Assembly: GCF_001475545.1 (NCBI RefSeq)
Contig: NZ_LDQC01000002.1
Coordinates: 62,001 to 126,000 of the forward strand
Length of the DNA: 64,000 nucleotides
DNA from: Curtobacterium luteum
GTDB lineage: Bacteria > Actinomycetota > Actinomycetes > Actinomycetales > Microbacteriaceae
Direction of reading: 5' to 3'
This document shows positions 6,150-58,048 of the stretch, in pieces (positions within the stretch are counted from its first letter, which is position 1; each line of letters begins with the position of its first letter). The translations under genes and the position numbers were made by a program. The notes under the pieces were generated by a model, which was not told the origin of the DNA, searched no databases, and worked only from the letters and a program-made list of their open reading frames with translations.

Positions 6150-6190
6150 GGCTGGAGGCGCGGGACGGGCACGCACCGCGCCTCCAGGCC
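6150..6190. repeat. GGAGGC palindromic element, copy 1 (convergent junction)
   Basis: Inverted repeat with left arm GGCTGGAGGCGCGG and right arm CCGCGCCTCCAGGCC, loop about 12 nt. It lies between the convergent ends of the FGGY kinase (6134) and corA (6225), where it could act as a two-way transcription barrier. Same family as the copies at 10860, 15699, 30053, 42434 and others. Confidence 0.85.
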
Positions 6191-6224
6191 GCAGCCGGTC
6201 GCGTCCAGGGCGCGCCCGTCGCGA

Positions 6225-7274
6225 CTACAGCCAGTTGCGCTTGCGGAAGACCGCCCAGAGGACAGCCATGAGCACGAGCATCGCGACGATCGCGACCGGG
6301 TACCCGAACCGCCAGTGGAGCTCGGGCATGTCGTCGAAGTTCATCCCGTAGATGCCCGCGATGAGCCCCGGAGCGAAGAGGATCGCGGCCCACGACGAGA
6401 TCCGCTTCACCTCCTCGCCCTGCCGGTGCGCGGCCCGGGCGAGCTGGCGGCTCTCCTCGCCCTGGGCGAGGCTCGCGCTGGTCATCCGGCGCATCGCCTC
6501 GTTCTGTTCCTGGGAGACGAGCGTCGAGTGCAGGGTGAGGGCGTTCTCGAGCAGCGCCCGGAACGAGTCGACCCGCTCGGTGACCCGCAGGGCGTGGTCG
6601 AGCACGTTGCGCAGGCGGTGCTGGACCTCCTCGTCGACGCCGTACTTGTCGGCGCCGCGCAGCAGACCCGTGACCATGGCCGGCACCGGGGTCGTCGCGC
6701 GCTGGAACCCGAGGACCTCGCTGAGGAGCTGGTAGATGCGCTTCGAGACACCGGGGTCGACCTGGCCGGCGAAGAGCTGGTCCTCGATGGCGTCGATCTC
6801 CTCCTGGAGGATCTCCACGATCGGCGCGTACCCGTCGACCACCTCGTCGAGCACGGCCGCGGTGACCGCCTCGGAGCCGCGGGCGAGGAACTCCGGGTCG
6901 GCCTCGCACCGGGCGCGCAGCGCCGCGAGGTCCGGCCGCTCGGCGTGCCGGACGCTCACCACGAAGCGGGCGCCGACGAACAGGTGGACCTCACCGAACC
7001 GGACCTCCTCGGCGGTGCGGTCGTACCAGGCCGGACGGAGGACCAGGAACAGGGTGTCGCCGTACCGCTCGAGCTTCGCCCGCTGGTGACCCTTGCGGGC
7101 GTCCTCGACGGCGTTCTCGTGCAGGTCGAACTCGGCGGCGACGGCGGCGAGCTCGGACGGCTCGGGTCGGAGCAGCCCGATCCACGCGAGGTCGCCCCGG
7201 GTGGCGCGCGACGGGGTCGACGGCGAGTCGACGCGGTGTCCTGCTACGTAGACGGCGTTGTCGATCAGTGCCAT
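6225..7274 (-). CDS. corA: CorA-type magnesium/cobalt transporter
   Basis: 349-residue divalent-cation channel subunit. The long, acidic and helical N-terminal cytoplasmic domain is followed by two C-terminal membrane helices; the first ends with the signature GMN (IYGMNF), which forms the pore mouth in the CorA pentamer. The start at 7274 is chosen over a more upstream ATG at 7316 because AAGGAG stands about six bases ahead of it and the first strand begins there. It is a single gene, convergent with the upstream kinase operon and separated from the next minus-strand gene by 250 bp. No M-box-like leader was recognised. Confidence 0.95.
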   Translation of the reverse strand: MALIDNAVYVAGHRVDSPSTPSRATRGDLAWIGLLRPEPSELAAVAAEFDLHENAVEDARKGHQRAKLERYGDTLFLVLRPAWYDRTAEEVRFGEVHLFVGARFVVSVRHAERPDLAALRARCEADPEFLARGSEAVTAAVLDEVVDGYAPIVEILQEEIDAIEDQLFAGQVDPGVSKRIYQLLSEVLGFQRATTPVPAMVTGLLRGADKYGVDEEVQHRLRNVLDHALRVTERVDSFRALLENALTLHSTLVSQEQNEAMRRMTSASLAQGEESRQLARAAHRQGEEVKRISSWAAILFAPGLIAGIYGMNFDDMPELHWRFGYPVAIVAMLVLMAVLWAVFRKRNWL

Positions 7275-7524
7275 GGCGTGCTCCTTGCGGGTCGGGAGCA
7301 GGCAGGCGCGAACCACCCGTGGGCGGTGCGGGATCAGGGACGGGGCAGGCGGATCCGCGGGGGCAGGGTCCGTCGGCCCGATCGAGGATGGTCACCCGAC
7401 ATCGCGCCTCACCTGCCCTTCTGGTCGTCCGTGGGCTGCCTCGTGCAGCCGACCTCCGAGCGTACCCAGGAGCGTCGAGGGCGTCGACCCCGGTCGGCGA
7501 CCGCGGAGCCGGACCTGAGTGCCC

Positions 7525-8121
7525 TCACATGTCCCAGACGTCGCGGTTCGACGAGGCGACGGCGACCGCTCCGGCGCCGAGCGCCGCCATCACGTCGGCC
7601 TTGTCGCACACCAGGCCGCCGGCGATGATCGGGACGTCGGTGTCCGCCCGCAGCCAGGTGATCACGCGGGGCATGCAGCCCGGGAGGATCTCGATCGCGT
7701 CCGGTCTGGCCTGCTCCACGACGCGGGGGAGCTGGTGGTACGAGAACGAGTCGACCAGGAAGAACCGCTGCACCGCGACGAGCCCCGCACGCCTGGCGGC
7801 CCGGACGAGGTTCGACTTCGCGGACAGGACCCCGTCCGCCCGGGTGTTCGCGGCGAGCCAGGTGACGACGACCTCTCGGCTGGAGAACCCGTCGAGGAGG
7901 TCCACGTCGACGAGCACGGTCTTGCCCGCGTCCTTCGCTCGCTGGACGACCTCCGCGACGTCGAGCACGCTGCCGAACAGCACGAACACGACGCCGCGGT
8001 CCGAGGCGAGCACGTCGTCGAGCCCCGTCCGGTCCTTCACGCTCGCGATGACCGGGTCGTCGCGGAGGGCGTCGAGGAGGGCGTCGGCGGCACTGGTGGC
8101 ATCGCGCTCCGCGGTGGTCAT
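7525..8121 (-). CDS. GlpP-like glycerol-3-phosphate responsive antiterminator family protein
   Basis: 198 residues (201 if the in-frame ATG at 8130 is used; neither has a clear Shine-Dalgarno). The sequence matches the GlpP family (PF04309), a TIM-barrel protein that in Bacillus binds glycerol-3-phosphate and glpD leader RNA. Recognisable segments are VLVDVDLLDGFSSRE in the middle, DAIEILPGCMPRVI and the closing IIAGGLV and AVASSNRDVW. In actinobacteria the target is usually unknown, and no glp genes are in this window, so an RNA-binding role here is only inferred. It is monocistronic, with no gene in the 250 bp downstream. Confidence 0.85.
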   Translation of the reverse strand: MTTAERDATSAADALLDALRDDPVIASVKDRTGLDDVLASDRGVVFVLFGSVLDVAEVVQRAKDAGKTVLVDVDLLDGFSSREVVVTWLAANTRADGVLSAKSNLVRAARRAGLVAVQRFFLVDSFSYHQLPRVVEQARPDAIEILPGCMPRVITWLRADTDVPIIAGGLVCDKADVMAALGAGAVAVASSNRDVWDM

Positions 8122-8130
8122 ACGGACCAT

Positions 8131-8339
8131 TGTCGATGCCGTGCCCTGGGCGCGCGCTGGTCGGCTGCCCGGGTCTCGGCCGGTGCCGCACGAGTCCCGG
8201 TGTGAGCGGCATGTCTCGCGCTCGTGCACAGGAGGGCCGGGTGGGCACCAGTCTCGCCACGCAGGTGGCGCGCCCGCGCGCCCCCGCGCAGGCGGCGCGT
8301 CCGCGAGCCCGCACGCAGGCGGTGTGACCGCCCCGCGCG
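8131..8339. repeat. Non-coding spacer with imperfect GC-rich tandem repeat
   Basis: The 209 bp between the GlpP-like gene and idi holds an imperfect direct repeat of about 27 bp (core CGCAGGYGG) at roughly 8259-8324, slightly more than two copies. No gene or promoter motif was convincing elsewhere in it. Confidence 0.4.
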
Positions 8340-8882
8340 CTACGGGGTGATGCGGAGTCCGGCCTGCTCGGTCTCGGCGAGCTGCCACCCGAGCCAGGGG
8401 CTCCACGCGAAGGGCGCGCCGGCCACCGAGGCCCGGAGCTCGTCCTCGGACACCCACGCGTACTCGGCGACCTCGTCGTCCGCGGGGGCCGGCTCGTCGT
8501 CGGTCACGGCCCGGAACACCGGGCAGACCTCGTTCTCGACGATCCCCGACGCGTCGACCGCGCGGTACCGGAAGTCGGGCAGGACCGACTCGACGTCGCG
8601 GACGGTGATCCCCAACTCGCGGGAGGCCCGGCGGGCGATGGCGTCCTCGAAGGTCTCGTCCGGGCCGGGGTGACCGCAGAACGTGTTCGTCCACACCCCC
8701 GGCCACGTCTTCTTCGACAGTGCGCGGCGGGTCACGAGGACCTGCCCGGCGGTATTCCGCACGTGGCACGAGAAGGCCAGGTGGAGGGGCGTGTGGTCGG
8801 TGTGCACCGTGAACTTGTCCGCCGTTCCGACCGGGGTACGGTCGTCGTCCAGCAACACCACGGTTTCAGGGAAAGTCGTCAT
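8340..8882 (-). CDS. idi: Isopentenyl-diphosphate delta-isomerase, type I
   Basis: 180-residue Nudix-fold isomerase that interconverts isopentenyl and dimethylallyl diphosphate, supplying the starter for GGPP synthesis. The active-site cysteine motif TNTFCGHP is near residue 63-70, followed by the Nudix helix (RRASRELGI) and the downstream glutamate region. Length is typical of the type I enzyme. The ATG at 8882 lies 21 bp from the divergent crtE ATG, and no Shine-Dalgarno fits between; the transcript is probably leaderless or nearly so. The divergent placement against the carotenoid operon links it to C50 carotenoid supply. Confidence 0.95.
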   Translation of the reverse strand: MTTFPETVVLLDDDRTPVGTADKFTVHTDHTPLHLAFSCHVRNTAGQVLVTRRALSKKTWPGVWTNTFCGHPGPDETFEDAIARRASRELGITVRDVESVLPDFRYRAVDASGIVENEVCPVFRAVTDDEPAPADDEVAEYAWVSEDELRASVAGAPFAWSPWLGWQLAETEQAGLRITP

Positions 8883-9962: not shown

Positions 9963-10879
9963 CCCTCGCGCACCACCCGCAACCGAACCGCTCCGCCCGA
10001 CTCCCGCTCTACGACGCGACCGCCGAGGCCGCCTCCGGGGTCGTCATCGACCGGTACTCGACGTCGTTCGGCCTCGCCTCGCGGCTGCTGAAGCGGGACG
10101 CCCGCGAGCACATCCGCAACGTCTACGCCCTCGTCCGGGTCGCCGACGAGGTCGTGGACGGCCCAGCGACCGAGGCCGGCCTCGACCGCGAGCTGGCCCG
10201 CACCGTCCTCGACGAACTCGAGCGCGACACCGAACGCGCAACCGAGCTCGGCTTCTCGACGAACCCGGTCGTGCACGCCTTCGCCCGGTCGGCCCGCGTG
10301 ACCGGCTTCGGTGCGGAACTCACCCGGCCGTTCTTCGCGTCGATGCGCATGGACCTCGACCGCACCGTGCACGACGACGACTCGTTCCGCGAGTACGTGT
10401 ACGGCTCGGCGGAGGTCGTCGGCCTGATGTGCCTCCGCGCGTTCGTGTACCGCGCCGGTCGCCCGACGTTCGACGACTCCGTGCTCGTCGACGGCGCACG
10501 GGCCCTCGGTGCCGCCTTCCAGAAGGTCAACTTCCTCCGCGACCTGCACGCCGACTTCGAGGTCCTCGGCCGCTCGTACTTCCCGGGCGTGGACATCCGC
10601 ACCTTCGACGAGGCCACCAAGGTGCGGCTGGTCGCGGACGTCCAGGCCGACCTCGACCGTGCCGCGATGACGATCCCGCTGCTGCCCCGGGACGCCCGGC
10701 ACGCGGTCGGCCTCGCCCACGCGCTGTTCCAGGAGCTCAACACGCGCATCGCGCGGACACCCGCCGCGCAGCTCGTCGCGACGCGCGTGCGTGTCCCGAA
10801 CCCGGTCAAGGCGCGGCTCGCCGCGCAGGTCCTGTCCGGTCGTGGGCCGGCCACGCGTCGGCCTGGAGGCACGGCATGA
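9959..10879 (+). CDS. crtB: Phytoene synthase
   Basis: 306-residue squalene/phytoene synthase that joins two GGPP molecules head-to-head into phytoene. The first aspartate motif (VRVADEVVDG, residues ~57-66) and the second region (NFLRDLHADFEVLGR, residues ~188-202) are present. It starts at a GTG overlapping the crtE stop. Its last codons, encoding the tail RRPGGTA, lie inside the left arm of a palindromic repeat that also holds the start of crtI, so the C-terminus was probably re-made by that element. Confidence 0.95.
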   Translation: MTLAHHPQPNRSARLPLYDATAEAASGVVIDRYSTSFGLASRLLKRDAREHIRNVYALVRVADEVVDGPATEAGLDRELARTVLDELERDTERATELGFSTNPVVHAFARSARVTGFGAELTRPFFASMRMDLDRTVHDDDSFREYVYGSAEVVGLMCLRAFVYRAGRPTFDDSVLVDGARALGAAFQKVNFLRDLHADFEVLGRSYFPGVDIRTFDEATKVRLVADVQADLDRAAMTIPLLPRDARHAVGLAHALFQELNTRIARTPAAQLVATRVRVPNPVKARLAAQVLSGRGPATRRPGGTA

Positions 10880-10905
10880 CCCCGCCCCGCGCCTCCCGTC
10901 CGGCC
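10860..10905. repeat. GGAGGC palindromic element, copy 2 (crtB/crtI junction)
   Basis: Left arm GGCCTGGAGGCACGG and right arm CCGCGCCTCCCGTCCGG flank the crtI ATG at 10876. The left arm provides GGAGG (10865-10869) six bases before that ATG. The right arm provides CCTCC (10892-10896), which can pair with it. The element therefore supplies crtB's last codons, crtI's ribosome-binding site and crtI's first residues. Confidence 0.85.
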
Positions 10906-12504
10906 GGTTCCGCGTCCACCACCCGGCGCAAGGTCCCCGTCCGCCGCGCCGTCGTGATCGGCGGCGGCATCAGCGGACTCGCGTCCGCTGCGCTGCTCGC
11001 GCGCGACGGCTACGCCGTCACGCTGCTCGAGCAGCGCAGCCAGCTCGGCGGACGCGCCGGATCGTGGGAGCGCGACGGCTTCACGTTCGACACCGGGCCG
11101 TCGTGGTACCTCATGCCCGAGGTGTTCGACCACTTCTTCCAGCTCCTCGGCACCACCGCGGCGGAGCAGCTCGACCTCGTCACGCTCGACCCCGGGTACC
11201 GCGTGTACTCCGAGGGTCATGACGAGCCGCTCGACCTCCGCGCCGACAAGGAAGCCAACATCGCGCTCTTCGAGTCGATCGAGCCAGGGGCGGGTGCACG
11301 GATCCGGAAGTACCTCGACTCCGCCGAGGATACCTACGCCATGGCGGTGCGGCGGTTCCTCTACACGACCTTCGCGGACCTCCGGAAGCTCGCGGCCCCG
11401 GACGTCCTGCGTCGGCTCCCGAAGCTCCTCCGTCTACTCACCGAGCCGCTCGCGAAGTACGCCGAGACCGCCGTGCGCGACCGTCGGCTCTGGCAGGTCC
11501 TCGGCTACCCGGCGGTGTTCCTCGGCACCAGCCCGTACAAGGCGCCGAGCATGTACCACCTCATGAGCCACCTCGACCTCGCGGACGGCGTGCAGTACCC
11601 GAAGGGCGGGATCCACGAGATCATCGGCGCGATCGGCCGACTCGCCCGTGCCGAGGGTGCGCAGGTCATCGCGGGAGCCAAGGTCGAGCGGATCGTCGTC
11701 GAGGACGGCCACGTCACCGGCGTCGTGCACCGCGACCGCGACGGCGGACAGCACGTCGCGCCGGCCGACCTCGTCGTCAGCGCAGCCGACCTCCGGCACA
11801 CCGAGCTGCAGCTGCTCGACCCCGAGCACCGCACGTACCCGGCGAAGCACTGGCAGAAGCGCGACCCGGGGCCGTCCGCCGTCCTCGTCTACCTGGGCGT
11901 CGACGGACCGGTGCCGGGGCTCCTGCACCACACACTCGTCTTCACCGCGGACTGGCAGGCCAACTTCGGCGCGATCTTCGGGAAGGAGCGCCACGTGCCG
12001 GACCCCGCATCGATCTACGTGTGCGCGCCGAGCGAGACCGACACGACGGTCGCGCCGCCCGGGTCGAGCAACCTCTTCGTCCTCGTGCCGCTGCCGGCCG
12101 ACCTGTCGATCGGCAAGGGCGGCGTCGACGGCGCCGGCGACTTCGAGGTCGAGCGGATCGCGGACCGCGCGATCGACGTCATCGCCGAGCGCTCGGGCGT
12201 CCCGGACCTCCGCGACCGCATCCGGGTCCGCCGGACGATCGGCCCGCAGGACTTCGCGGACGACCTGAACGCGTGGAGCGGTTCGATGCTCGGGCCGGCG
12301 CACACCCTCACGCAGAGCGCGTTCTTCCGCGAGCCGAACCGGTCGAAGAAGGTCGACGGGCTGTACTACGTCGGCGCCTCGACCACGCCGGGCATCGGCC
12401 TGCCGATGTGCCTGATCAGCGCCGAGGTCCTGCTCAAGCGCCTGCACGGCGACACGAGCACCGAGCCGCTCCCCACCCCGCTCCGGCGGGACGCCGCGGT
12501 CTGA
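10876..12504 (+). CDS. crtI: Phytoene desaturase
   Basis: 542-residue FAD-dependent desaturase that converts phytoene to lycopene. The dinucleotide-binding motif GGGISGLASA begins at residue 29, and the C-terminal CrtI signature YVGASTTPGIGLPM is close to the end. The ~23-residue basic stretch before the Rossmann strand is longer than usual and is encoded by the palindromic element; no other canonical start lies between it and the FAD motif. Start ATG 10876 overlaps the crtB stop (ATGA) and has GGAGG six bases upstream. Overlaps crtYe by one base. Confidence 0.96.
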   Translation: MTPPRASRPAGSASTTRRKVPVRRAVVIGGGISGLASAALLARDGYAVTLLEQRSQLGGRAGSWERDGFTFDTGPSWYLMPEVFDHFFQLLGTTAAEQLDLVTLDPGYRVYSEGHDEPLDLRADKEANIALFESIEPGAGARIRKYLDSAEDTYAMAVRRFLYTTFADLRKLAAPDVLRRLPKLLRLLTEPLAKYAETAVRDRRLWQVLGYPAVFLGTSPYKAPSMYHLMSHLDLADGVQYPKGGIHEIIGAIGRLARAEGAQVIAGAKVERIVVEDGHVTGVVHRDRDGGQHVAPADLVVSAADLRHTELQLLDPEHRTYPAKHWQKRDPGPSAVLVYLGVDGPVPGLLHHTLVFTADWQANFGAIFGKERHVPDPASIYVCAPSETDTTVAPPGSSNLFVLVPLPADLSIGKGGVDGAGDFEVERIADRAIDVIAERSGVPDLRDRIRVRRTIGPQDFADDLNAWSGSMLGPAHTLTQSAFFREPNRSKKVDGLYYVGASTTPGIGLPMCLISAEVLLKRLHGDTSTEPLPTPLRRDAAV

Positions 12505-12836: not shown

Positions 12837-13285
12837 ACGCGCACGCCGCGTACGCCCTGCTCGCGGTGCCGTTCCTCGCGGTCGCGGTCGTCGTCGCGGT
12901 GCTCGCAGGGGTCGTCGCCGCTCGTCGCGCCCGGGCCGCCGGTCGGCCGACGGGCCCCGGTCGTCGGGTCGCCCTCGTGGGCGGGGTGATCACGGCGGTG
13001 GTGCTCCTCGGCATGACGATCGTGTTCGACAACGTCATCGTGACGCTGCGCGTGGTGGCGTACGACCCGTCCCTCATCAGCGGTGCGAAGATCGGTGCGA
13101 TCCCGATCGAGGACCTCGCGTACTCGATCGGTGCGGTCCTGTTGCTCCCCGCCCTGTGGGTGCTGCTCGACCGTTCGTCCTCCACCGCGTCACCGGCGCA
13201 CCCGACCCGCTCTGCTCCGCCGGAGCACCCGTCCCGCGACGCGCCCGGTGCGCGACCGTCCGTAGAAGGCGAGCCGACCCCATGA
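12833..13285 (+). CDS. crtYf: C50 carotenoid cyclase subunit, CrtYf-type
   Basis: 150 residues, GTG start overlapping the previous stop. About three membrane helices are followed by the motif IGAIPIEDLAYSIGAVLLL, matching the second lycopene-cyclase-domain subunit. The last ~45 residues are a disordered Pro/Ser/Ala tail that is not part of the domain. It acts with the preceding subunit to close the end rings of the C50 carotenoid in the membrane. Overlaps crtEb by 4 bp. Confidence 0.87.
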   Translation: MNAHAAYALLAVPFLAVAVVVAVLAGVVAARRARAAGRPTGPGRRVALVGGVITAVVLLGMTIVFDNVIVTLRVVAYDPSLISGAKIGAIPIEDLAYSIGAVLLLPALWVLLDRSSSTASPAHPTRSAPPEHPSRDAPGARPSVEGEPTP

Positions 13286-14199
13286 CCGCGACCCGTGCCT
13301 CCTGGCCGTCGACCCTGCGTGCGCTCTTCACGTCCTCGCGGCCCATCAGCTGGGTGAACACCGCCTACCCGTTCGGCGCCGCGTACCTGCTCGCCACCGA
13401 CGTGTTCGGTTCGGTGCTCGGCGTCGTGACCTTCGTCATCGGCGTCGTGTACTTCCTCGTCCCGTACAACCTCGCGATGTACGGCATCAACGACGTCTTC
13501 GACTACGAGTCCGACCTGCGGAACCCGCGCAAGGGCGGCGTCGAGGGGGCACTGCTCGACAAGAGTGTGCACCGCACCACGCTGTGGGCGGTCGTCATCA
13601 CGAACGTGCCGTTCCTGGTCGCGCTCGTCGTGCTCGGCGGGCTGAGCGGGAACGGGCCGTGGTCGTGGCTCGTCCTCGCCGTCAGCGTGTTCGCGGTGAT
13701 CGCGTACTCGGCGCCGGGGCTGCGGTTCAAGGAGAAGCCGTTCCTCGACTCGCTGACCTCGTCGACGCACTTCGTGTCGCCGGCGATCTACGGGCTCGCG
13801 CTCGCCGGGCCGCACTGGACGGGGCAGCTCGTCGCCGTGTGCGTGGCGTTCTTCCTGTGGGGCGTGGCGTCGCACGCGTTCGGTGCCGTGCAGGACGTGC
13901 TCGCCGACCGCGCGGGCGGCATCGGCTCGGTGGCGACCGTGATCGGTGCCCGGGCGACGGTGCGGCTGGCGTTCGTGGCGTACGTCGTCGCGGGCGTCGT
14001 CCTGCTGTTCTCGGCGTTCCCGGGGCCGGTCGCCGCGGTCGTCGTGGTGCCGTACGCGCTCAACGTGCTGCCGTGGTGGAACGTGACCGACGCCGGAGCC
14101 GAGGCGGCGAACGCGGGGTGGAAGCGGTTCCTGTGGATCAACTACCTCGCGGGGTTCCTCGTGACGATGGCGCTCATCGCGTACGCGTTCGTGCGCTGA
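13282..14199 (+). CDS. crtEb: Lycopene elongase / UbiA-family prenyltransferase
   Basis: 305-residue polytopic UbiA prenyltransferase. The Mg2+-binding aspartate motif NDVFDYESD lies near residue 70-78, and the second, DVLADRAGG, near 206-214. It adds C5 units to lycopene, giving the C45/C50 chain that CrtYe/CrtYf cyclise. Last gene of the tightly overlapped operon; the ATG overlaps the crtYf stop. Gene order crtE-B-I-Ye-Yf-Eb is the known C50 arrangement of actinobacteria, with idi moved to the divergent side here. Confidence 0.93.
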   Translation: MTATRASWPSTLRALFTSSRPISWVNTAYPFGAAYLLATDVFGSVLGVVTFVIGVVYFLVPYNLAMYGINDVFDYESDLRNPRKGGVEGALLDKSVHRTTLWAVVITNVPFLVALVVLGGLSGNGPWSWLVLAVSVFAVIAYSAPGLRFKEKPFLDSLTSSTHFVSPAIYGLALAGPHWTGQLVAVCVAFFLWGVASHAFGAVQDVLADRAGGIGSVATVIGARATVRLAFVAYVVAGVVLLFSAFPGPVAAVVVVPYALNVLPWWNVTDAGAEAANAGWKRFLWINYLAGFLVTMALIAYAFVR

Positions 14200-15698: not shown

Positions 15699-15750
15699 GA
15701 CGGTCGGCCTGGAGGCACGTGGCGGGCCCGCACCGTGCCTCCCGGCCGTC
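15699..15750. repeat. GGAGGC palindromic element, copy 3 (convergent junction)
   Basis: Left arm GACGGTCGGCCTGGAGGCAC pairs with right arm GTGCCTCCCGGCCGTC across a GC-rich loop. It is intergenic between the Gfo/Idh/MocA gene (end 15511) and the MBL-fold gene (end 15893), again at a convergent junction. Confidence 0.85.
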
Positions 15751-15892
15751 ACACGGTCACGACCTTCCGCCGGGCCGGCCGCTCGGAGCCGAGTCTCGTG
15801 TCAGCCGACGAGCCTCGTGTCCCACCGCGCGGCGCCGCGTCTCGCGGCCCATCGTGCGCCGCGTTCCGCGGTGGCACCCGCGCTGCTCCGCG

Positions 15893-17236: not shown

Positions 17237-17238
17237 TC

Positions 17239-18935: not shown

Positions 18936-19015
18936 CGGCCTGGAGGCGCGGTGCGGCCCCGTCAGTCCGCATCCGTAGGCTGGTGCGCATGACCGACACC
19001 GCGCCTCCCGTCAGC
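18936..19015. repeat. GGAGGC palindromic element, copy 4 (spans an SDR start)
   Basis: Left arm CCGGCCTGGAGGCGCGGTG (18936-18954) and right arm CACCGCGCCTCCCG (from 18998) are separated by about 43 bp that hold the SDR start codon and its likely -10 box. The right arm encodes residues ~4-9 of the SDR protein. Confidence 0.75.
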
Positions 19016-26163: not shown

Positions 26164-27287
26164 GCTTCCGCACCCTTCTGGTCGGACTGGAGGCGCGGTG
26201 CGGCTCCGGTGGTCGTGCTGCGGTTCGCGACGCCCGTGGCGGGTCGCGACCCGCCGTCGGCGGTGACGCGCGTCTGGAGCGCACGCCGTGCCTCCAGGCC
26301 GTCGCGCTTCGCGCGCTTCTTCTGGTCCCGCTCGCTCTTCGGCGGCCGGTTCGTCAGCGCGAGGAACGCGAACGACAGGATGAACGCGGCCAGCGCGATG
26401 ATCACGGCCTGCGCCGAGGCGACGCCGTACTCGTTGAAGGCGAACGCGTTCGTGTACGCGGCGTAGTTCGGCGTGTACTCGGTGTCGATCGCGGGTGCGA
26501 CCGTGGACAGGATCTGCGGCTCCGCGAAGAGCTGCAGTGTGCCGATGATCGAGAACACCGTCGTGAGCACGAGCGCGGGTGCGATGAGCGGGATCTGGAT
26601 GCGCCACGCGACCTGGAACGCGTTCGCGCCGTCCATCTTCGCGGCCTCGTAGACCTCGCCGGGGATCGACTTCAGCTGCGCCACGATGATGAGCATGTTG
26701 TAGCCGGTGTACGTCCACGTGACGATGTTCGCGATCGACCACAGGACGCTGTTCGCGCCGAGGAAGTCCGGCTGCAGCCCGATCGACTGCAGCAGCGCCA
26801 CGATCGGGGACAGCCCGGGTACGTAGAGGAACGACCACAGGATGGTCGCGATGACGCCCGGGACGCCGTACGGCATGAAGTACACGGCCCGGAAGAACGC
26901 GGGCCAGCGGGCGCTCGCCGACTCGAGGAGCAGCGCCAGGATCGTGCAGAGGACGATCATCACCGGGACCTGGACGATCCCGAACAGCAGCATGCGGCCG
27001 ATCGAGGCGACGAAGCCGGAGTCCTGCAGGGCGATCGCGTAGTTGTCGAACCCGGCGAACCGGCCGACGACGCCGTCCTCACCGAAGAGGCCCTTCCGGT
27101 CGACGGTCGTGAAGCTCTGGAACAGCGCACTGATGATCGGGATGATGAACGTCAGGACGAACAGTGCGAGGAAGGGGCCGAGCAGGATCCACGGGGCCCG
27201 CTTCTGGGCAGCCGTTGCCTTCGTGCTCGTGCGGAAGCCGGTGCGCGGCTGCGAGGTGGCCGTCGCGCGGTCCTGGGTGGCGGTCAT
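26160..27287 (-). CDS. Carbohydrate ABC transporter permease (MalF type) with repeat-derived tail
   Basis: 375 residues, six membrane helices. The EAA loop is YEAAKMDGANAFQVAWRI. Permease homology ends near residue 327 (LTNRPPKSERDQ). The last ~45 residues are a hydrophilic tail starting DGLEARRALQTRV and ending near APRLQSDQKG; both ends are translations of the arms of a palindromic element at 26184-26303. The tail is therefore probably an insertion-derived extension rather than part of the channel. Start ATG 27287 overlaps the SBP stop by 4 bp. Confidence 0.9.
   Translation of the reverse strand: MTATQDRATATSQPRTGFRTSTKATAAQKRAPWILLGPFLALFVLTFIIPIISALFQSFTTVDRKGLFGEDGVVGRFAGFDNYAIALQDSGFVASIGRMLLFGIVQVPVMIVLCTILALLLESASARWPAFFRAVYFMPYGVPGVIATILWSFLYVPGLSPIVALLQSIGLQPDFLGANSVLWSIANIVTWTYTGYNMLIIVAQLKSIPGEVYEAAKMDGANAFQVAWRIQIPLIAPALVLTTVFSIIGTLQLFAEPQILSTVAPAIDTEYTPNYAAYTNAFAFNEYGVASAQAVIIALAAFILSFAFLALTNRPPKSERDQKKRAKRDGLEARRALQTRVTADGGSRPATGVANRSTTTGAAPRLQSDQKGAEA
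26184..26303. repeat. GGAGGC palindromic element, copy 5 (translated in a permease)
   Basis: GGACTGGAGGCGCGGTGCGG at 26184-26203 and CGCCGTGCCTCCAGGCCGTC at 26284-26303 are the two arms, with an 80-bp intervening segment. Everything between is coding for the C-terminal tail of the permease on the minus strand. The long inner segment differs from the compact copies and could be an enlarged loop. Confidence 0.65.
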
Positions 27288-30038: not shown

Positions 30039-30052
30039 TGTGGTGAGCATCT

Positions 30053-30100
30053 GACGGACGGGAGGCGCGGTGTCGGCCGGCACCGCGCCTCCCGTCCGTC
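30053..30100. repeat. GGAGGC palindromic element, copy 6 (near-perfect 48-bp palindrome)
   Basis: The two 24-bp halves are inverse copies with one mismatch; the left arm begins GACGGACGGGAGGCGCGG. It lies between the Rv2629-like gene and the acyltransferase, which are convergent, and its right arm contributes to the acyltransferase stop codon (30099-30101). Best-conserved copy in the window and a good seed for a genome search. Confidence 0.92.
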
Positions 30101-31208
30101 ATGGCACCGTCGACTCGTCCCGCGGCGGTGCCCGGTGCCCCCCGAGGATGTCGGCGGACGACCGGTCTCGAGGCGGTCGATCCGACCAGCGGTGTACGGC
30201 GGGCGGAGGTCGGAACAAGTGGTCGGCACGGGTGCCCCGCACCGGCCAGTAGCCGACGAGCCCCGCGAGCGTCGCGACGACGGTGAGAGCAGCGATCGTG
30301 CCGGTCGGGTGTGCGACGAGGAACGGCGTCGCACCGAGGAGCTCGGCCGATGCGAGGAGGCCGACGATGACGGCCGTGTGGGTCAGGTAGGGGACGATCG
30401 ACCAGCGCCCGAGCGCGCGGATCGGATTCGTCACGCGCAAGTCGTCCAGGACACGCGCGATCACGAGCGCGGACGCAGTCCCGATCACGACGTGGAGCAC
30501 TGCGAGTGCGTGCTCCATGATGCCGGTCGACCTCGCGTGGGCCTCACCGACAGCGACCCAGACGCAGACGGCCACGACCGCCACGGGGGGAGACCCGAAC
30601 CGATCGGCGTTCGCGATCAGTCGTGGCCCGAGGTGCGCGCCGATCGCGGTCAGGAACGCGAACTGTGGCAGTCCCTGCAGACCGGGCCCGGCCACGTGCC
30701 AGAGGTCGTCACCGACCACCGAGCGGCCCCACCCGATCACCCAGGCGCCGACGACGGTGAGGGCGGAGAGGACGACCACCGCTGGCAGACGTCGGGTCAG
30801 CCACACCAGCACGAAGTGGAGCGCGAGTGCCCACAGGTACCAGATCTCGCCGTTCGGGCGCACGAACGCCGCGATGACCCTCGCTGTCTCACCGATCAGA
30901 TCGAGGTCCTCGCCCGCGGACGAGTGGCCGACGAGGCGGTACACGAACACCCCCGGTTGCCAGAGCACGTAGAGGTAGAGCAGCGGAGTGATCCGCGTCA
31001 CCAGGTGGCGCGCCGGAGTGTCGTGTGCGGTCAGCGCCGGACCCGCGAGGATGCCGGAGACGATGAAGAAGACGGGCAGTGGCATCACCAGGTGATCGAG
31101 CACCCACCGGGCGATCTCGGAGTCGGCCGGAGCCCAGGCGGCGACGTGGATCAGGACGATCCCGACGATCGCGAACCCTTTTGCGGTGTCGAGCCAACCG
31201 ATCCTCAT
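30099..31208 (-). CDS. Membrane acyltransferase, AT3-like family
   Basis: 369 residues, about ten membrane helices. The N-terminus MRIGWLDTAKGFAIVGIVLIH is the acyltransferase-3/YfcC-like entry, with the conserved D and K and an Arg/His pair following; the family transfers acyl groups to cell-surface glycans or to small molecules. The last ~40 residues are hydrophilic and end in a palindromic element. The ATG at 31208 is preceded by TTGAAC-N17-TACTCT-N6, so the mRNA is almost certainly leaderless. It lies 26 bp after the MFS gene on the same strand but has its own promoter. Substrate unknown. Confidence 0.85.
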   Translation of the reverse strand: MRIGWLDTAKGFAIVGIVLIHVAAWAPADSEIARWVLDHLVMPLPVFFIVSGILAGPALTAHDTPARHLVTRITPLLYLYVLWQPGVFVYRLVGHSSAGEDLDLIGETARVIAAFVRPNGEIWYLWALALHFVLVWLTRRLPAVVVLSALTVVGAWVIGWGRSVVGDDLWHVAGPGLQGLPQFAFLTAIGAHLGPRLIANADRFGSPPVAVVAVCVWVAVGEAHARSTGIMEHALAVLHVVIGTASALVIARVLDDLRVTNPIRALGRWSIVPYLTHTAVIVGLLASAELLGATPFLVAHPTGTIAALTVVATLAGLVGYWPVRGTRADHLFRPPPAVHRWSDRPPRDRSSADILGGHRAPPRDESTVP

Positions 31209-33395: not shown

Positions 33396-33606
33396 CGTCG
33401 GCTCCTGTGTGTGGGCATCGGTTCGGTTGACGCAGGCCCCTGCCTGCGGATGCGCTTCCTCACGGGACGTACTGAGGTCGCTCAAGTGTGACCCGGTCTG
33501 TCCATCCTGCGCAAGGGTGCGAGCAGCCCTGTGGACAGACCGGTCGCGGCGGCGTGCCTAGGATGGTCCGGCCGCACCGGGCGCGGCACCACCAGCGCGC
33601 GACGAC
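33396..33606. other. Divergent spacer between the 50-residue gene and lacI
   Basis: 211 bp. It contains a compact hairpin (CGCAGG…CCTGCG at about 33431-33448) in the presumed leader of the small gene, and TAGGAT (33559-33564), a possible -10 for lacI with a weak upstream TGGACA at non-ideal distance. No operator palindrome was found. Confidence 0.35.
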
Positions 33607-33652
33607 GGACGGGAGGCACGGCATGGCTGGACAGCGCACCGCACCTCCCACG
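33607..33652. repeat. GGAGGC palindromic element, copy 7 (donates lacI start)
   Basis: Left arm GGACGGGAGGCACGG and right arm CCGCACCTCCCACGG enclose the ATG at 33623. GGAGG at 33612-33616 is the Shine-Dalgarno six bases before that ATG, and CCTCC at 33644-33648 can pair with it. The layout is identical to that at crtI. Confidence 0.8.
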
Positions 33653-38560: not shown

Positions 38561-40353
38561 GCGGCGCACCCACGCACGCAGCAGACGGCCGGGAGGCCCG
38601 TGGCGGCGCCGCCACGCGCCTCCCGTCCGACGATCGCGTCACCACGAACGCCACGCACGACGTCCTGCTGGACGTCCGCGACCTGTCGGTCGTCTACGAG
38701 TCCGCCGGCCAGGAGGCCGTCCAGGCCGTCGACCACGTGTCGTTCTCCCTGCGGAAGGGCGAGTTCGTCGGCCTCGTGGGGGAGTCCGGCTCCGGCAAGT
38801 CGACCCTCGGCTACGCGCTGACGCGGCTGCAGAAGTCGCCGGCGCGCACCAACGGCGGCAACATCGTCTTCGCCGGCCGCGACATCCGCGACCTCGACGA
38901 CGAAGCGCTCCGCCAGCAGCGGCAGGGCGGGTTCGCGATGGTGCTGCAGTCCGGCATGAACGCGCTCAACCCGGTCCGGACGGTCCGCAACCACTTCATC
39001 GACGTGTTCAAGGCCCACGGCCACGTGCCGCGCGAGCGCTGGGACGCCCGGATGCGGGAGCTCGTCGAGAAGGTGAAGCTCCCCGCCACGATGCTCGCCC
39101 GCTACCCCGGGGAGCTCTCCGGCGGCATGCGGCAGCGCGTGTCGATCGCCCTCGCGCTGTCACTCGAACCGCGCCTCATGGTGTTCGACGAGCCGACAAC
39201 GGCGCTCGACGTCCTCGTGCAGCACGCCGTGATGGACACCATCATCGAGCTGCAGCAGTCCGAGGGCTTCACGGCGGTCCTCATCAGCCACGACCTCGGC
39301 ATCGTCCTCGAGGCCACGGAGCGCGTGCTCGTCATGCACGAGGGGCGGATCGTCGAGGACGGCGGGTCGAAGGAGATCCTGCGCGACCCGCAGGACGACT
39401 ACACGAAGATGCTGCTGTCGCACTACGCCGACCCGCGCGCTTCGGTGGTGAGCCTGCCCGGCTTCCCGGACCGGTCGCTCCGCTCGTCCGAGGGCGCGAC
39501 GCGACAGGAGACGACGTCGTCGTTCAGCACCGTCGGCTCGCGGGAGCGTTCTGCCGCCCGCAACCCGGTCGTCGTCGACCACCTCGTGAAGACGTACCCG
39601 GCACCCCGCCGCGGCGAGCAGCCCGTCCAGGCCGTGCGCGACGTCTCGTTCACCCTCGAGCCCGGGCAGTCGCTCGCCCTCGTCGGCCAGTCCGGCTCGG
39701 GCAAGTCGACGATCGCGAAGATGCTCACCGGGGTCGAGAAGCCGACCACCGGCACCGTCCGGTTCGGAGACACCGACGTGGCGAAGCTCGGCAGGCGTGG
39801 CCTGAAGGACCTGCGCTCCGAGGTGCAGATGGTGTTCCAGGACCCGTACGCGGCGCTCAACCCGCTGCACACCGTCGAGTACATCCTCTCCCGGCCGATC
39901 GCGAACTACACGGACCTCCGCGGCCGCGACGCCCGACGTCGGATGCTCGAACTCCTCGAGACCGTCGGGCTGACGCCCGTCGAGCAGTTCGCGCAGAAGC
40001 TCCCGCACCAGCTCTCCGGCGGGCAGCGGCAGCGCGTCGTCATCGCACGGGCGCTCGCGAGCGACCCGCAGGTGATCATCGCCGACGAGCCCGTCTCGAT
40101 GCTCGACGTCACGCTCCGCGCCGGGGTGCTCGCGCTCCTCGAGGACCTGCGCGAGCAGTGGGGCGTCTCGCTCCTCTACATCACGCACGACCTGCTGAGT
40201 GCACGCCTCATCACGGACGACATCATGGTGCTGCACGACGGCGCCGTGGTCGAACGGGGCCGCACGGCCGAGGTGCTGCAGGACCCGCAGGACCCGTACA
40301 CGGTGGCGCTGCTCGACGCGGTGCCGAACCCCCGAAGGGCACTGCTGGCATGA
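38557..40353 (+). CDS. Fused double ABC ATPase (DppD-DppF)
   Basis: 598 residues containing two complete nucleotide-binding domains. First: Walker A GESGSGKS (~residue 75), signature LSGGMRQRV, Walker B LMVFDEPTTALD. Second: Walker A GQSGSGKS (~385), signature LSGGQRQRVVIARAL, then IIADEPVSMLD. The oligopeptide importer thus needs only this one ATPase polypeptide. Residues ~8-25 (around DGREARGGAATRLPSDD) come from a palindromic element in the coding sequence and lie before the first domain, so they are likely tolerated. Start overlaps the permease stop. Confidence 0.92.
   Translation: MSGAPTHAADGREARGGAATRLPSDDRVTTNATHDVLLDVRDLSVVYESAGQEAVQAVDHVSFSLRKGEFVGLVGESGSGKSTLGYALTRLQKSPARTNGGNIVFAGRDIRDLDDEALRQQRQGGFAMVLQSGMNALNPVRTVRNHFIDVFKAHGHVPRERWDARMRELVEKVKLPATMLARYPGELSGGMRQRVSIALALSLEPRLMVFDEPTTALDVLVQHAVMDTIIELQQSEGFTAVLISHDLGIVLEATERVLVMHEGRIVEDGGSKEILRDPQDDYTKMLLSHYADPRASVVSLPGFPDRSLRSSEGATRQETTSSFSTVGSRERSAARNPVVVDHLVKTYPAPRRGEQPVQAVRDVSFTLEPGQSLALVGQSGSGKSTIAKMLTGVEKPTTGTVRFGDTDVAKLGRRGLKDLRSEVQMVFQDPYAALNPLHTVEYILSRPIANYTDLRGRDARRRMLELLETVGLTPVEQFAQKLPHQLSGGQRQRVVIARALASDPQVIIADEPVSMLDVTLRAGVLALLEDLREQWGVSLLYITHDLLSARLITDDIMVLHDGAVVERGRTAEVLQDPQDPYTVALLDAVPNPRRALLA
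38584..38629. repeat. GGAGGC palindromic element, copy 8 (translated in an ATPase)
   Basis: Left arm GACGGCCGGGAGGCCCGTGG and right arm CCACGCGCCTCCCGTCC, almost loop-free at the centre (GCGGC/GCCGC). It is fully inside the N-terminal coding region of the double ATPase, between the start codon (38557) and the first domain. Confidence 0.85.
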
Positions 40354-42418: not shown

Positions 42419-42433
42419 GACGGTCGCGTCTTC

Positions 42434-42477
42434 CGGACTGGAGGCTCGGTGCCGGCTGGCACCGAGCCTCCCGTCCG
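42434..42477. repeat. GGAGGC palindromic element, copy 9 (convergent junction)
   Basis: Left arm CGGACTGGAGGCTCGGTGCC and right arm GGCACCGAGCCTCCCGTCCG form a nearly perfect 20-bp stem. It lies between the convergent ends of the GH1 gene (42418) and the ankyrin gene (42499). The GCTCGG/CCGAGC change occurs in both arms, a compensatory pair. Confidence 0.9.
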
Positions 42478-42498
42478 TGTTGCGGTCCGTTCTGCGGT

Positions 42499-50597: not shown

Positions 50598-52025
50598 TCA
50601 GCTCCGCGCGGCGCGGCGTCCGCCGGTACGAGGGACAGCGGAGAAGTCGACCGCTGAGCCCCCCCTGCCGTAGTACGCGTAGTACGTGCCGTACCCGTAC
50701 GAGCCCGCACCCTTCGTGGGCAGCATCGTCATGACCAACCCGAGGGTGCGTCCGCCGACGCTCGCGAGTGCGTCGAGCGCGACGCGGAGTTGGTTCCGGG
50801 AGGCGCGGCCGGCCGCAGCGATGACGAGCGCACCGTCCGTCAGGCGCGCGAGCAGTGCGGCGTCCGTCACCGGCAGGAGCGGCGGAGCATCGATGATGAC
50901 GTAGTCGAACGCTGTCGACAGGTGATCGACGAGTGCGCGCATCCGAGCACTGCCGAGCAGTTCGGACGGGTTCGGGGGGATGCGGCCCGCCGGCAGGACG
51001 TGCAGCCCGCCGGACCCCCACGGGTGGATCACGTCGTCGAGTTCGGCGCGGCCGATCAGGACGTCGGTCAGGCCGGCAGCCCCCTCGACGCCGAGCACGT
51101 CGTCGAGCCGGGGTCGTCGGAGGTCCGCATCCACGATGATCACCCGGACGCCGCTCTCGGCCATCGCGATCGCCAGGTTCGCGGCGGTCGTCGACTTGCC
51201 CTCGGACGGGAGGGACGACGTGATCGTGAAGCTCCGGACCGTGTCGTCCAGGTCGACGAACTGCACGTTCGTCCGGAGCGTGCGGAACGACTCGGCGCGC
51301 GGGTTCCGCGGATCGACGTGGACTATCAGTGGCTGCTTGGTGGCGGCGGGATCGAAGCCGATGCCTCCGAGCACCGGGAGCTCCGTCACGGCCCGGACGT
51401 CCTCTTGCGTGCGGACCTTGGTGTCGAGTGTGCTGCGGATCAGGGCGGCGGCGATCCCCAGGACCAGTCCGACCGTGAGCCCGAGGACGAGGTTCGTGGT
51501 GAGCTTGGGCGAGGTCGGGGTGGTCGGGACGACCGGGGGTTCGATGGTCCCGATCCGGACGAGTGAGGGGCCACCGGAGGTGGGTGTCTCGAGGTCCTCG
51601 GTGACGACCTTGGCGAAGCTCGACCCGACTGCGCCGGCGACCTTCGCGGCCGTCGCGGCGTCAGGGTGCTGGACGGTGATGTCGATGACCACCGTGTTCA
51701 CCTTCGAGGCTGCGGTCACCCGGCCGGCGAGCGCCGCGACGCTCTCGTCGAGGTCGAGTTCGTCGATGACCGGTTGGAGGACGCTCGCCGTGGTGACGAC
51801 ATCGATGTACGACGACACCTTCTGCTGCGCCGCGCTGTTGCCCTGCACGAGCTCGCTGGTCGTGGTGCCGGTCGACTGGACGGCCACGAAGACCTTCGTC
51901 GTCGAGGAGTACAGGGGGGTCGCGGAGAGCGTCAGGGCGGCACCGCCCGCCAGTCCGAGGGTGCTCAGTGCCACAACGAGGAGCCACGAGCGGCGGATCA
52001 CGCGGACGAAGTCGGGGAAGGTCAT
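50598..52025 (-). CDS. Polysaccharide co-polymerase with BY-kinase domain (Wzz-Wzc type)
   Basis: 475 residues. N-terminal Wzz domain with two membrane helices (about residues 14-36 and 180-200) flanking an outer loop, then a cytoplasmic BY-kinase domain: Walker A SSLPSEGKST near 267, Walker A' VIIVDADLRRP and Walker B VIIDAPP. The C-terminal tail SYGYGTYYAYY (residues ~442-452) has six tyrosines for autophosphorylation. It controls chain length and export of the polymer. It has its own promoter sharing the EPS module; transcribed opposite to the polymerase gene. Confidence 0.94.
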   Translation of the reverse strand: MTFPDFVRVIRRSWLLVVALSTLGLAGGAALTLSATPLYSSTTKVFVAVQSTGTTTSELVQGNSAAQQKVSSYIDVVTTASVLQPVIDELDLDESVAALAGRVTAASKVNTVVIDITVQHPDAATAAKVAGAVGSSFAKVVTEDLETPTSGGPSLVRIGTIEPPVVPTTPTSPKLTTNLVLGLTVGLVLGIAAALIRSTLDTKVRTQEDVRAVTELPVLGGIGFDPAATKQPLIVHVDPRNPRAESFRTLRTNVQFVDLDDTVRSFTITSSLPSEGKSTTAANLAIAMAESGVRVIIVDADLRRPRLDDVLGVEGAAGLTDVLIGRAELDDVIHPWGSGGLHVLPAGRIPPNPSELLGSARMRALVDHLSTAFDYVIIDAPPLLPVTDAALLARLTDGALVIAAAGRASRNQLRVALDALASVGGRTLGLVMTMLPTKGAGSYGYGTYYAYYGRGGSAVDFSAVPRTGGRRAARS

Positions 52026-54236: not shown

Positions 54237-54246
54237 AACGCATATC

Positions 54247-54312: not shown

Positions 54313-54318
54313 GTTTGC

Positions 54319-57510: not shown

Positions 57511-57533
57511 GGCGCCACCCTACCCAGTGCGTC

Positions 57534-57953
57534 CTAGTGCGGCGGACGCCAGAGGACGATCTGCGTGTTCCGCTGCGGTCGCACGCCGGCGCGCAGGGGA
57601 ACGGCGCCGCCGGTGGCCGACGCGGCGAAGACGCGCGCTCCCGGCCGGTTGATGAGCTGGTCGGCGAGGGCGGTCTCGAGCTCGGACACCCGTGCGCGGA
57701 GCGCACGGTTCTCGTTCTCCAGCTCGAGCACCCGCCGGATGCCCTCGAGCGAGACGCCCTCGGATCCGAGCCGTGCGATCTCCCGCAGCTGCGCGATGTC
57801 CCGCATGGAGTACCGGCGCGAGCCACCGCGGGTCCGCCCGGGCACGACGAGGCCGAGCCGGTCGTACTGCCGCAGGGTCTGCGGGTGCATCTCGGCGAGC
57901 TCGGCAGCCATGGCGATGGCGAAGACGGGCGAGTTCTCGTCCATGTCGGTCAT
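57534..57953 (-). CDS. hspR: HspR heat-shock repressor (MerR family)
   Basis: 139 residues. MerR-type HTH at ~10-75 (FAIAMAAELAEMHPQTLRQYDRLGLV, then RGGSRRYSMRDIAQLREI), a helical middle segment and the closing hydrophobic NTQIVLWRPPH tail typical of HspR. It represses the dnaK operon by binding HAIR inverted repeats, with DnaK as co-repressor. Fourth gene of dnaK-grpE-dnaJ-hspR, giving the classic feedback loop. ATG 57953 has GGAAGGGG about nine bases upstream. A palindromic element lies between dnaJ and this gene. Confidence 0.95.
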   Translation of the reverse strand: MTDMDENSPVFAIAMAAELAEMHPQTLRQYDRLGLVVPGRTRGGSRRYSMRDIAQLREIARLGSEGVSLEGIRRVLELENENRALRARVSELETALADQLINRPGARVFAASATGGAVPLRAGVRPQRNTQIVLWRPPH

Positions 57954-57985
57954 CAACCGCCCCTTCCGTTCACCACGTGGTCTGG

Positions 57986-58048
57986 AACCCAGCCTGGAGG
58001 CCCGGCGAGCGTCCGTCAGGAAGCCGCGCCGGGCCTCCAAGCCGGGTT
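57986..58048. repeat. GGAGGC palindromic element, copy 10 (dnaJ/hspR spacer)
   Basis: AACCCAGCCTGGAGGCCCGG on the left and CCGGGCCTCCAAGCCGGGTT on the right form a 20-bp imperfect stem, with T5 following on the plus strand (58047-58051). On the operon strand it lies within the dnaJ-hspR spacer and could attenuate or stabilise hspR mRNA; no T-run exists in that direction. Confidence 0.85.

What the first reader, a model, noticed from the sequence alone, without database searches (positions are those of the whole stretch)
6150..58048. A family of ~10 palindromic GGAGGC...GCCTCC elements scattered through the window
Seen directly: copies at 6150, 10860, 15699, 18936, 26184, 30053, 33607, 38584, 42434 and 57986. 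All share a left arm around [AG]C[TG]GGAGGC-CGG and a right arm around CCG-GCCTCC[AC]G. Arms are 14-24 bp. At 42434 both arms carry a matched change (GCTCGG/CCGAGC), as expected if pairing is conserved. Four copies lie in convergent gene junctions, three at gene starts, two inside coding sequence and one in an operon spacer. This is a REP-like dispersed family; I know of no description of it. Whether a transposase (RAYT-type) or a nucleoid/terminator function keeps it is unknown.
Basis: partly seen in the sequence, partly recalled or inferred. Interest (0 to 1): 0.8.

Follow-up and report, generated by a model that had tools for sequence, protein, structure and literature searches.

The report
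Uptake-signal-like DNA word in Curtobacterium
A short DNA word, repeated hundreds to more than a thousand times in genomes of two related genera of actinobacteria and often doubled into hairpins at the ends of genes, looks like the 'take up your own kind's DNA' signals best known from two other bacterial families, but what it does has not been tested.

Summary
All ten copies lie where stated, in the contexts stated. GGAGGCNCGG occurs 19 times in the window against 2.9 by shuffling; the genome has 136 full hairpins, reversed control 0. Arm pairing covaries (66 copies: score 0.215, shuffled 0.085). Pairs occur in 33 of 97 convergent and 35 of 269 tandem junctions but 1 of 125 divergent ones. No RAYT gene was found.

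The hairpin is not the basic unit. Its arm word GGAGGCGCGG is the top 10-mer in a second genus (g35, unnamed): 842-1725 copies in each of 16 genomes and, in the one sampled, mostly single, in both orientations, within genes in every frame and between genes. In g35 orthologues it is kept in 57-67% (coding) and 62-96% (intergenic) of cases, against 22-23% and 11% for comparable 10-mers. These are marks of Neisseriaceae uptake sequences, including inverted pairs at gene ends. comEC-type genes are present, and natural transformation is published for two other family members.

Best reading: an uptake-signal-like word whose inverted pairs double as gene-end hairpins. Uptake is untested; another DNA-binding role remains open.

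The parts
6142..6197 (.). hairpin (inverted word pair, 32-bp core) in the convergent junction of an FGGY kinase gene and a CorA gene
   Evidence: z -3.65
8622..8631 (+). single GGAGGCCCGG inside coding sequence; may be chance
10853..10908 (.). imperfect inverted pair at a gene start; left arm GGAGG lies in the Shine-Dalgarno position of the gene at 10876 (amine-oxidase family), right arm in its first codons; does not fold better than shuffles
   Evidence: z +0.21
13293..13302 (-). single word in the first codons of a UbiA-family gene (13282-14199)
15699..15754 (.). hairpin in a convergent junction
   Evidence: z -2.47
18936..19014 (.). widely spaced inverted pair (67 bp) across the start of a short-chain dehydrogenase gene (18989)
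   Evidence: z -2.0
26183..26301 (.). widely spaced inverted pair (107 bp) in the C-terminal coding end of a transport permease gene
   Evidence: z -2.15
30049..30104 (.). near-perfect palindrome in a convergent junction after the baeRF_family2 gene
   Evidence: z -8.47
33606..33650 (+). word in the Shine-Dalgarno position of a gene starting at 33623 (LacI type by its N-terminal residues, a label recalled; no family search of it succeeded), with an imperfect CCTCC partner in its first codons; does not fold better than shuffles
   Evidence: (z +0.97)
38580..38635 (.). palindrome inside the N-terminal leader of an ABC-transporter ATPase gene (called 38557-40353); both arms kept in 29 of the 31 orthologues printed while the leader around varies
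   Evidence: z -4.75
42428..42483 (.). hairpin in a convergent junction, with the matched GCTCGG/CCGAGC change in both arms
   Evidence: z -6.99
50799..50808 (+). single word GGAGGCGCGG inside coding sequence
57986..58048 (.). hairpin in the spacer after a dnaJ gene and before a merR-family gene, followed on the + strand by a T run
   Evidence: z -5.37

Best explanation
The ten elements are inverted pairs of a short dispersed DNA word: core GGAGGCGCGG, in Curtobacterium CGG[AC]C[TG]GGAGGCNCGG. The word is kept genome-wide because something reads it as DNA. The most likely reader is the natural-transformation machinery, which would prefer DNA carrying the word; recombination of such DNA then spreads and maintains it, as with DUS in Neisseriaceae and USS in Pasteurellaceae. 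Where two words lie head to head just after a stop codon they form a stable hairpin, probably a bidirectional 3'-end or terminator structure. Gene ends favour such pairs and both arms stay complementary. Shown here: over-representation, strand symmetry, location, pairing, conservation above background, more divergent flanks, presence of comEC, a ComEA-type domain gene beside it and secretion/pilus-type ATPase genes. Inferred: sequence-specific uptake, drive by transformation, and transcription termination.
For: Top-ranked 10-mer against an order-5 Markov model in 400 kb of G035: 203 vs 23.4. In the two Curtobacterium samples 92 vs 8.0 and 68 vs 9.0, fourth by z-score behind three overlapping words of the same longer motif (only 10-mers with at least 25 copies ranked).

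Whole genomes of g35: 842-1725 copies in 16 of 16, total 10,767 forward and 10,860 reverse, reversed-word control 1,408. In the family scan of 130 genomes the three g1, the two g35 and one g55 genome (399 vs 142) clearly exceed the control.

G035: 100/103 by strand; in genes 62 same / 63 anti, all frames used; 78 of 203 between genes although only 17.5% of bases are. Round the G110 chromosome 48/61 by strand, p 0.25, no link to GC skew.

Conservation in g35 orthologues: coding 20 of 30 vs 23%, intergenic 23 of 24 vs 11% of comparable 10-mers; with query and subject swapped 20 of 35 vs 22% and 23 of 37 vs 11%. Curtobacterium, 83-88% pairs: 173 of 244 vs 35%; 71 of 87 vs 21%. Flanks of coding words are more divergent than background, 83.4 vs 88.4%.

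Most single-base variants are near chance. Inverted pairs at 3' ends: 33/97 convergent, 35/269 tandem, 1/125 divergent; median 19 nt after the stop. Covariation. comEC, HHH_3 within about 1 kb of it, and T2SSE in 8 of 8 genomes.

Literature: natural transformation in two Microbacteriaceae (PMC11577799, passages). DUS conserved, in permissive regions, paired as terminators (PMC2397512 and PMC3630211, passages).
Against: No uptake or binding experiment exists. The uptake-type genes are also in G163, a Curtobacterium with few hairpins (8) and few 16-mers (11), and in many control genomes (comEC 10 of 14, HHH_3 11 of 14, T2SSE 14 of 14), so they do not discriminate. Spacing is not even (CV 1.26). 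Known uptake words show one preferred orientation within genes (PMC2346458, abstract); G035 shows none (62/63) and G110 a weak one (30 same / 50 anti, p 0.03). The Pasteurellaceae bias to gene ends is not seen in G035: 44 of 125 coding words within 150 nt of an end, expected 31%, p 0.33. The per-base identity of coding words (88.8%) is above their flanks but equals the coding background (88.4%). Intergenic losses in Curtobacterium are mostly gaps, 13 of 16 at 83-88% identity. In Curtobacterium most strict words are in hairpins (118 of 171), and inner stems recur between copies, which could mean copying of whole hairpins. A stretch of the G110 chromosome has few words (post hoc), which a nucleoid site could also explain. 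The hairpins lack a U-tract.
Confidence: 0.5

Rival explanations
1. The word is the site of another genome-wide DNA reader, such as a nucleoid-organising, nucleoid-occlusion or Chi-type recombination protein, and gene-end hairpins are a by-product.
For: Sharp, conserved, dispersed word; a chromosome stretch in G110 is poor in it, 2.3 vs 7.7 per 20 kb (post hoc).
Against: No strand bias, which argues against Chi- and KOPS-type sites as I recall them. Up to 1725 copies per genome is far above the numbers of SlmA/Noc sites that I recall. Inverted pairing at gene ends is not a trait of such sites that I know of (recalled).
Confidence: 0.28
2. It is a gene-end hairpin (terminator) family only, homogenised by selection and gene conversion; single words are decayed or half-made hairpins.
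For: Strong 3'-end placement and covariation in Curtobacterium. Whole inner stems differ as units between relatives at one site. Intergenic losses are mostly gaps. A hairpin sits at the end of a gene block shared by two Microbacterium plasmids.
Against: In 400 kb of G035, 179 of 215 GGAGGCNCGG have no partner, and 125 of 203 GGAGGCGCGG lie in coding sequence, conserved beyond background in g35 orthologues. A hairpin does not need one exact word.
Confidence: 0.15
3. A REP/MITE-like mobile palindrome family.
For: Short palindromes in more than 100 copies, mostly after genes; recurrent inner stems; intergenic losses mostly gaps.
Against: No Y1_Tnp match in the genome; no GTAG and no unpaired tag; coding losses mostly substitutions, 59 of 71 at 83-88% identity; the sister genus has mostly single words, many inside genes. 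Other transposase families were not searched for.
Confidence: 0.05
4. A by-product of base composition, codon use or Shine-Dalgarno sequences in about 71-73% GC DNA.
For: The word is GC-rich, contains GGAGG, and the encoded EAR/RAS peptides fit high-GC codon use.
Against: Reversed control word about 15 times rarer in g35; antisense as common as sense and all frames used in G035; nearly all sampled genera outside g1, g35 and g55 show word counts at or below or close to the control; only 4 of 322 words have a predicted start 4-12 nt downstream, a lower bound since my starts can be wrong.
Confidence: 0.02

Closest known systems
DNA uptake sequence (DUS) of Neisseriaceae
   Same: 10-12 bp word in about a thousand or more copies, in and between genes; conserved while its surroundings are permissive; inverted pairs at gene ends; related dialects in related genera (PMC2397512, PMC3630211, passages)
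   Different: Sequence unrelated; host is a high-GC Gram-positive; no receptor known (ComP is neisserial, PMC6370729, passages); uptake untested; no orientation preference within genes in G035; in Curtobacterium pairs outnumber singles
Uptake signal sequence (USS) of Pasteurellaceae
   Same: Hundreds to thousands of copies of a short word (PMC2346458, abstract); inverted pairs (recalled)
   Different: Sequence unrelated; gene-terminus bias and orientation bias not seen in G035
REP elements (GTAG and CGTC super-families)
   Same: Short palindromes, many copies, mostly downstream of genes (PMC3733652, passages)
   Different: No GTAG, no unpaired tag, stems of up to about 22 bp with a loop of at most about 4 nt, no RAYT
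Intrinsic transcription terminators
   Same: Stable GC-rich hairpin a median 19 nt after the stop
   Different: No U-tract (T 17% in the next 10 nt); built from one genome-wide word
Chi sites (recalled)
   Same: Over-represented short word
   Different: No strand bias; paired at gene ends

Membership tests
DNA uptake sequence (DUS/USS kind) | A short word vastly over-represented in the genome | tested here: met
   whole genomes
DNA uptake sequence (DUS/USS kind) | Both orientations, in genes and between genes | tested here: met
   (samples of two g35 genomes)
DNA uptake sequence (DUS/USS kind) | Frequent close inverted pairs at gene ends | tested here: met
   Curtobacterium; 18 strict pairs in 400 kb of G035, mostly at gene ends
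DNA uptake sequence (DUS/USS kind) | Word conserved above background, in permissive surroundings | tested here: met
   two g35 regions and one Curtobacterium locus, comparisons not independent
DNA uptake sequence (DUS/USS kind) | Absent from recently acquired DNA | tested here: inconclusive
   Two low-GC stretches (L024 0 copies, L030 3), but low GC alone predicts few
DNA uptake sequence (DUS/USS kind) | One orientation commoner within reading frames (PMC2346458, abstract) | tested here: inconclusive
   G035 62/63; G110 30/50, p 0.03
DNA uptake sequence (DUS/USS kind) | Bias to gene termini (reported for Pasteurellaceae, not defining for DUS) | tested here: not met
   44 of 125 coding words within 150 nt of an end, expected 31%, p 0.33
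DNA uptake sequence (DUS/USS kind) | DNA with the word is taken up preferentially, through a receptor | not testable with these tools
   needs a transformation assay; uptake-type genes are present
REP / RAYT elements | RAYT (Y1_Tnp) gene in the genome | tested here: not met
   0 matches to PF01797 in a draft 99.99% complete; 5 of 14 control genomes ring
REP / RAYT elements | Unpaired GTAG or CGTC tag at one end | tested here: not met
   66 copies: no GTAG; CGTC lies in the paired outer arm
Intrinsic terminator | GC-rich hairpin after the stop codon | tested here: met
Intrinsic terminator | U-tract after the hairpin | tested here: not met
   (870 downstream bases, T 17%)
Chi-type recombination site | Strand bias relative to replication (recalled) | tested here: not met

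The most novel reading that the evidence does not exclude
Curtobacterium and a second Microbacteriaceae genus (and weakly a g55 genome) carry an independently evolved self-DNA uptake signal, GGAGGCGCGG, with genus dialects. To my knowledge it would be a third such system in bacteria and the first in Gram-positives, and would mean that a sequence-specific DNA receptor exists on their pilus or competence machinery.
Probability: 0.45. Interest if true: 0.87.

Novelty: new variant of a known kind. Interest (0 to 1): 0.72.

Why it matters
To my knowledge self-DNA uptake words are established in only two families, both Gram-negative. A third, in a different phylum and with an unrelated sequence, would show that sequence-specific uptake, and the drive that spreads such words, arise repeatedly, and would make the search for a Gram-positive DNA receptor concrete: one word, two dialects, genomes with many and few copies. 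Even if uptake is not the cause, a 10-bp word present up to 1725 times per genome and conserved inside genes needs an explanation, and it accounts for the hairpins at many Curtobacterium gene ends. The searches I ran in the held library showed no earlier description; most subscription papers are not in it.

Tried and rejected
REP/RAYT: rejected as a family; only this one transposase family was searched for. Rfam: no family in the window at gathering scores. Codon, composition and Shine-Dalgarno effects: rejected by orientation, frame and reversed-word controls. Chi/KOPS: no strand bias. k-mer scan of single 21-kb loci to find per-species families: too little sequence, gave nothing useful. Phage collection: no match to one hairpin in 50,697 records at E 0.1. 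Blast of the first G000 and G105 samples gave almost no shared region, replaced by the 39 loci. A word CGGATGC in other genera was seen but not pursued.

Limits. Gene calls come from my own script, not a standard annotator; starts may be off. In one search the LacI-type query was in a wrong frame, so its hits there are void; one search used the right frame, but its output was cut and I saw only part of that block. Conservation pairs come from one locus and are not independent; in the 83-88% class the first 60 pairs were used. One search used one direction of each comparison; the swapped direction gives lower but still high values. One search ended with a script error after printing 67 copies; one copy cut by a stretch end was left out, giving the 66.
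Full report
WHAT WAS CHECKED. In the window GGAGGCNCGG occurs 19 times against 2.89 expected and at most 7 in 100 shuffles. The window lies in a 3.585-Mb draft of 209 contigs; related loci are titled Curtobacterium in nearly all cases. The genome holds 136 copies of GGAGGCNCGG-N(4-34)-CCGNGCCTCC and 0 of the reversed control. Seven of the ten window copies are compact; two are widely spaced pairs and one has a poor partner; the copies at 10860 and 33607 do not fold better than shuffles.

PAIRING. I took copies with a 32-bp core from about 817 kb of two Curtobacterium species: 67 found, 66 aligned. Over 22 pairs, 90.6% of cells are paired; the covariation score is 0.215 against 0.085 in shuffles (0 of 500 reach it) and at most 0.088 when slid. 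The copies were chosen by the GGAGGC/GCCTCC core and by inner pairing, so the fair test is the outer arm, which was not used in choosing: score 0.280 against 0.103 shuffled and at most 0.113 slid, with A-U/C-G and G-C/U-A exchanges. Copies are not independent by descent.

PLACE. Of 66 strict hairpins, 25 lie in convergent and 27 in same-strand junctions, 0 in divergent ones, 6 in coding sequence and 8 at stretch ends. By junction of at least 20 bp, 33 of 97 convergent, 35 of 269 same-strand and 1 of 125 divergent intervals hold a GGAGGC...GCCTCC pair; the inside-out control gives 0, 3 and 1. For the 32-bp-core copies the outer arm starts a median 19 nt after the stop codon (67 of 87 distances at most 60 nt), with no T-run following. 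So these are gene 3'-end hairpins; termination is inferred.

THE UNIT IS THE WORD. In the family scan of 249 genomes, hairpins are abundant only in the own genus (136, 160, 158, 205, but 8 in G163) and in genus g35 (67, 24, 35, 24); the rest have 0-3. In an order scan of 198 genomes with a stricter pattern, 6 genomes besides the window's own have one hairpin each. In the g35 hairpins listed the outer stem is constant and the inner stem varies. In 400 kb of G035, 179 of 215 GGAGGCNCGG have no strict partner. GGAGGCGCGG is the top 10-mer there by z-score, 203 against 23.4; in the two Curtobacterium samples it is 92 against 8.0 and 68 against 9.0, fourth behind overlapping words of the same longer motif. 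Whole-genome counts in g35 are 842-1725 in 16 of 16 genomes, 10,767 forward and 10,860 reverse, against 1,408 for the reversed word. In 130 family genomes the three Curtobacterium (364, 688, 673), two g35 and G055 (399 against 142) clearly exceed the control; G125, also g55, has 133 against 98; the others have 0-208 copies, nearly all at, below or close to their control. In Curtobacterium 65 of 66 genomes hold CGGCCTGGAGGCNCGG, 0-216 copies.

HOW THE WORD BEHAVES. In G035 it is as often forward as reverse (100/103), as often sense as antisense in genes (62/63), and uses every frame; 78 of 203 are between genes, which make up 17.5% of bases. Around the G110 chromosome it is 48/61 by strand (p 0.25) with no link to skew, and 30 sense / 50 antisense in genes. 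Most single-base variants are near chance level; exceptions are variants at the last two positions in both samples and the seventh base in Curtobacterium, where A is accepted (63 against 6.2; 4 against 1.9 in G035), a dialect difference. In g35 orthologues (about 86% identity) coding words are kept in 20 of 30 cases against 23% of other 10-mers with at least nine G/C, and intergenic words in 23 of 24 against 11%. With query and subject swapped the values are 20 of 35 against 22% and 23 of 37 against 11%, because one genome has words that the others lack. In Curtobacterium the 83-88% pairs give 173 of 244 against 35% and 71 of 87 against 21%; the 88-93% pairs 82 of 108 against 43% and 44 of 57 against 29% (one locus, pairs not independent). 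Alignments in intergenic DNA may be drawn to the word. Flanks of coding words are more divergent than background (83.4 against 88.4%, p 1.6e-4; intergenic 78.6 against 81.9%, p 0.045), while the words' own mean identity is 88.8% and 94.8%. Losses at 83-88% identity are 59 substitutions and 12 gaps in coding DNA, but 3 and 13 between genes. In the N-terminal leader of the ABC-transporter gene at 38557 both arms are present in 29 of the 31 orthologues printed while the leader around them changes in length; a conserved peptide could contribute there.

READING. A published study of neisserial DUS describes high conservation, permissive surroundings and inverted pairs as terminators (PMC2397512, passages); the dialect study found its words as very over-represented 10-mers and reports inverted pairs in all genomes with DUS (PMC3630211, passages). 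The family contains naturally transformable members, Rhodoluna lacicola and Aurantimicrobium photophilum (PMC11577799, passages). comEC, a HHH_3 (ComEA-type, a label from domain and position) gene beside it, and T2SSE-family ATPases are present in 8 of 8 genomes searched. I therefore read the word as uptake-signal-like and the hairpins as its inverted pairs. That it works like a DUS is inferred; that it is a DUS is not claimed, because preferential uptake was not testable.

AGAINST. G163, a Curtobacterium with few words, also has these genes, and they are common in the control genomes. Spacing is uneven (CV 1.26). Known uptake words prefer one orientation within genes (PMC2346458, abstract), which G035 does not show. 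Gene-end bias within genes is absent. Depletion in two low-GC stretches is confounded by composition. One chromosome zone of G110 is poor in words (chosen after seeing the data), so a nucleoid role is not excluded. Curtobacterium hairpins share recurrent inner stems and intergenic losses are mostly gaps, which suggests copying, conversion or insertion of whole hairpins besides any effect of the word.

PRINT. Searches for REP in Microbacteriaceae, Curtobacterium palindromes, the word itself (25 papers, 15 listed, none on a bacterial genome motif by title), uptake sequences in Actinobacteria (7 listed), natural transformation with Clavibacter (3 listed), over-represented motifs (0) and uptake sequence with Microbacteriaceae (0) showed no earlier description. 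For most of these I saw listings only. Subscription journals are largely missing from that library.

Noticed in passing
L062-L099, just after the orthologue of window 28881-30038: The same gene end carries hairpins of different sequence families in different Curtobacterium species (GGAGGC type, GAGCAGAAATGGTCG type, GTACCTGGTCG type with tandem units, CGCGCGTAGGAGGTCG type, AACGCAACG type), as if gene-end hairpins are exchanged as cassettes.
   Followed up: partly
G110 chromosome about 1.17-2.1 Mb: The word is scarce: mean 2.3 against 7.7 per 20 kb in 6 against 15 stretches, p 0.002, chosen after the fact.
   Followed up: partly
G084, G009, G140, G058 and G001 samples (L126-L135, L146-L160): Words containing GGATGC/GCATCC (CGGATGC, CGGATGCCG) are modestly over-represented in several other Microbacteriaceae genera; possibly another dispersed word.
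   Followed up: no
L182, L183 (Microbacterium plasmids): Two Microbacterium plasmids share a gene block ending in the Curtobacterium-type hairpin about 11 bp after an SDR-family gene, perhaps a tag of DNA from a Curtobacterium-like donor.
   Followed up: partly
G000 contigs C15, C19, C35, C101: At least four contigs of the draft end within about 12 bp of a hairpin core, so these palindromes seem to break the assembly.
   Followed up: no
L003 (G105:C1), about 36925-37040 of the contig: Three copies, 52 bp apart, of a tandem unit containing a single word.
   Followed up: no
window 33606-33650: In the LacI-type gene (label recalled) a Shine-Dalgarno GGAGG and, in most of the orthologue rows still visible in a cut output, a CCTCC in the first codons recur; some rows have CCGCC or CCACC instead; a possible translational hairpin, though its fold is not better than shuffles.
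   Followed up: no
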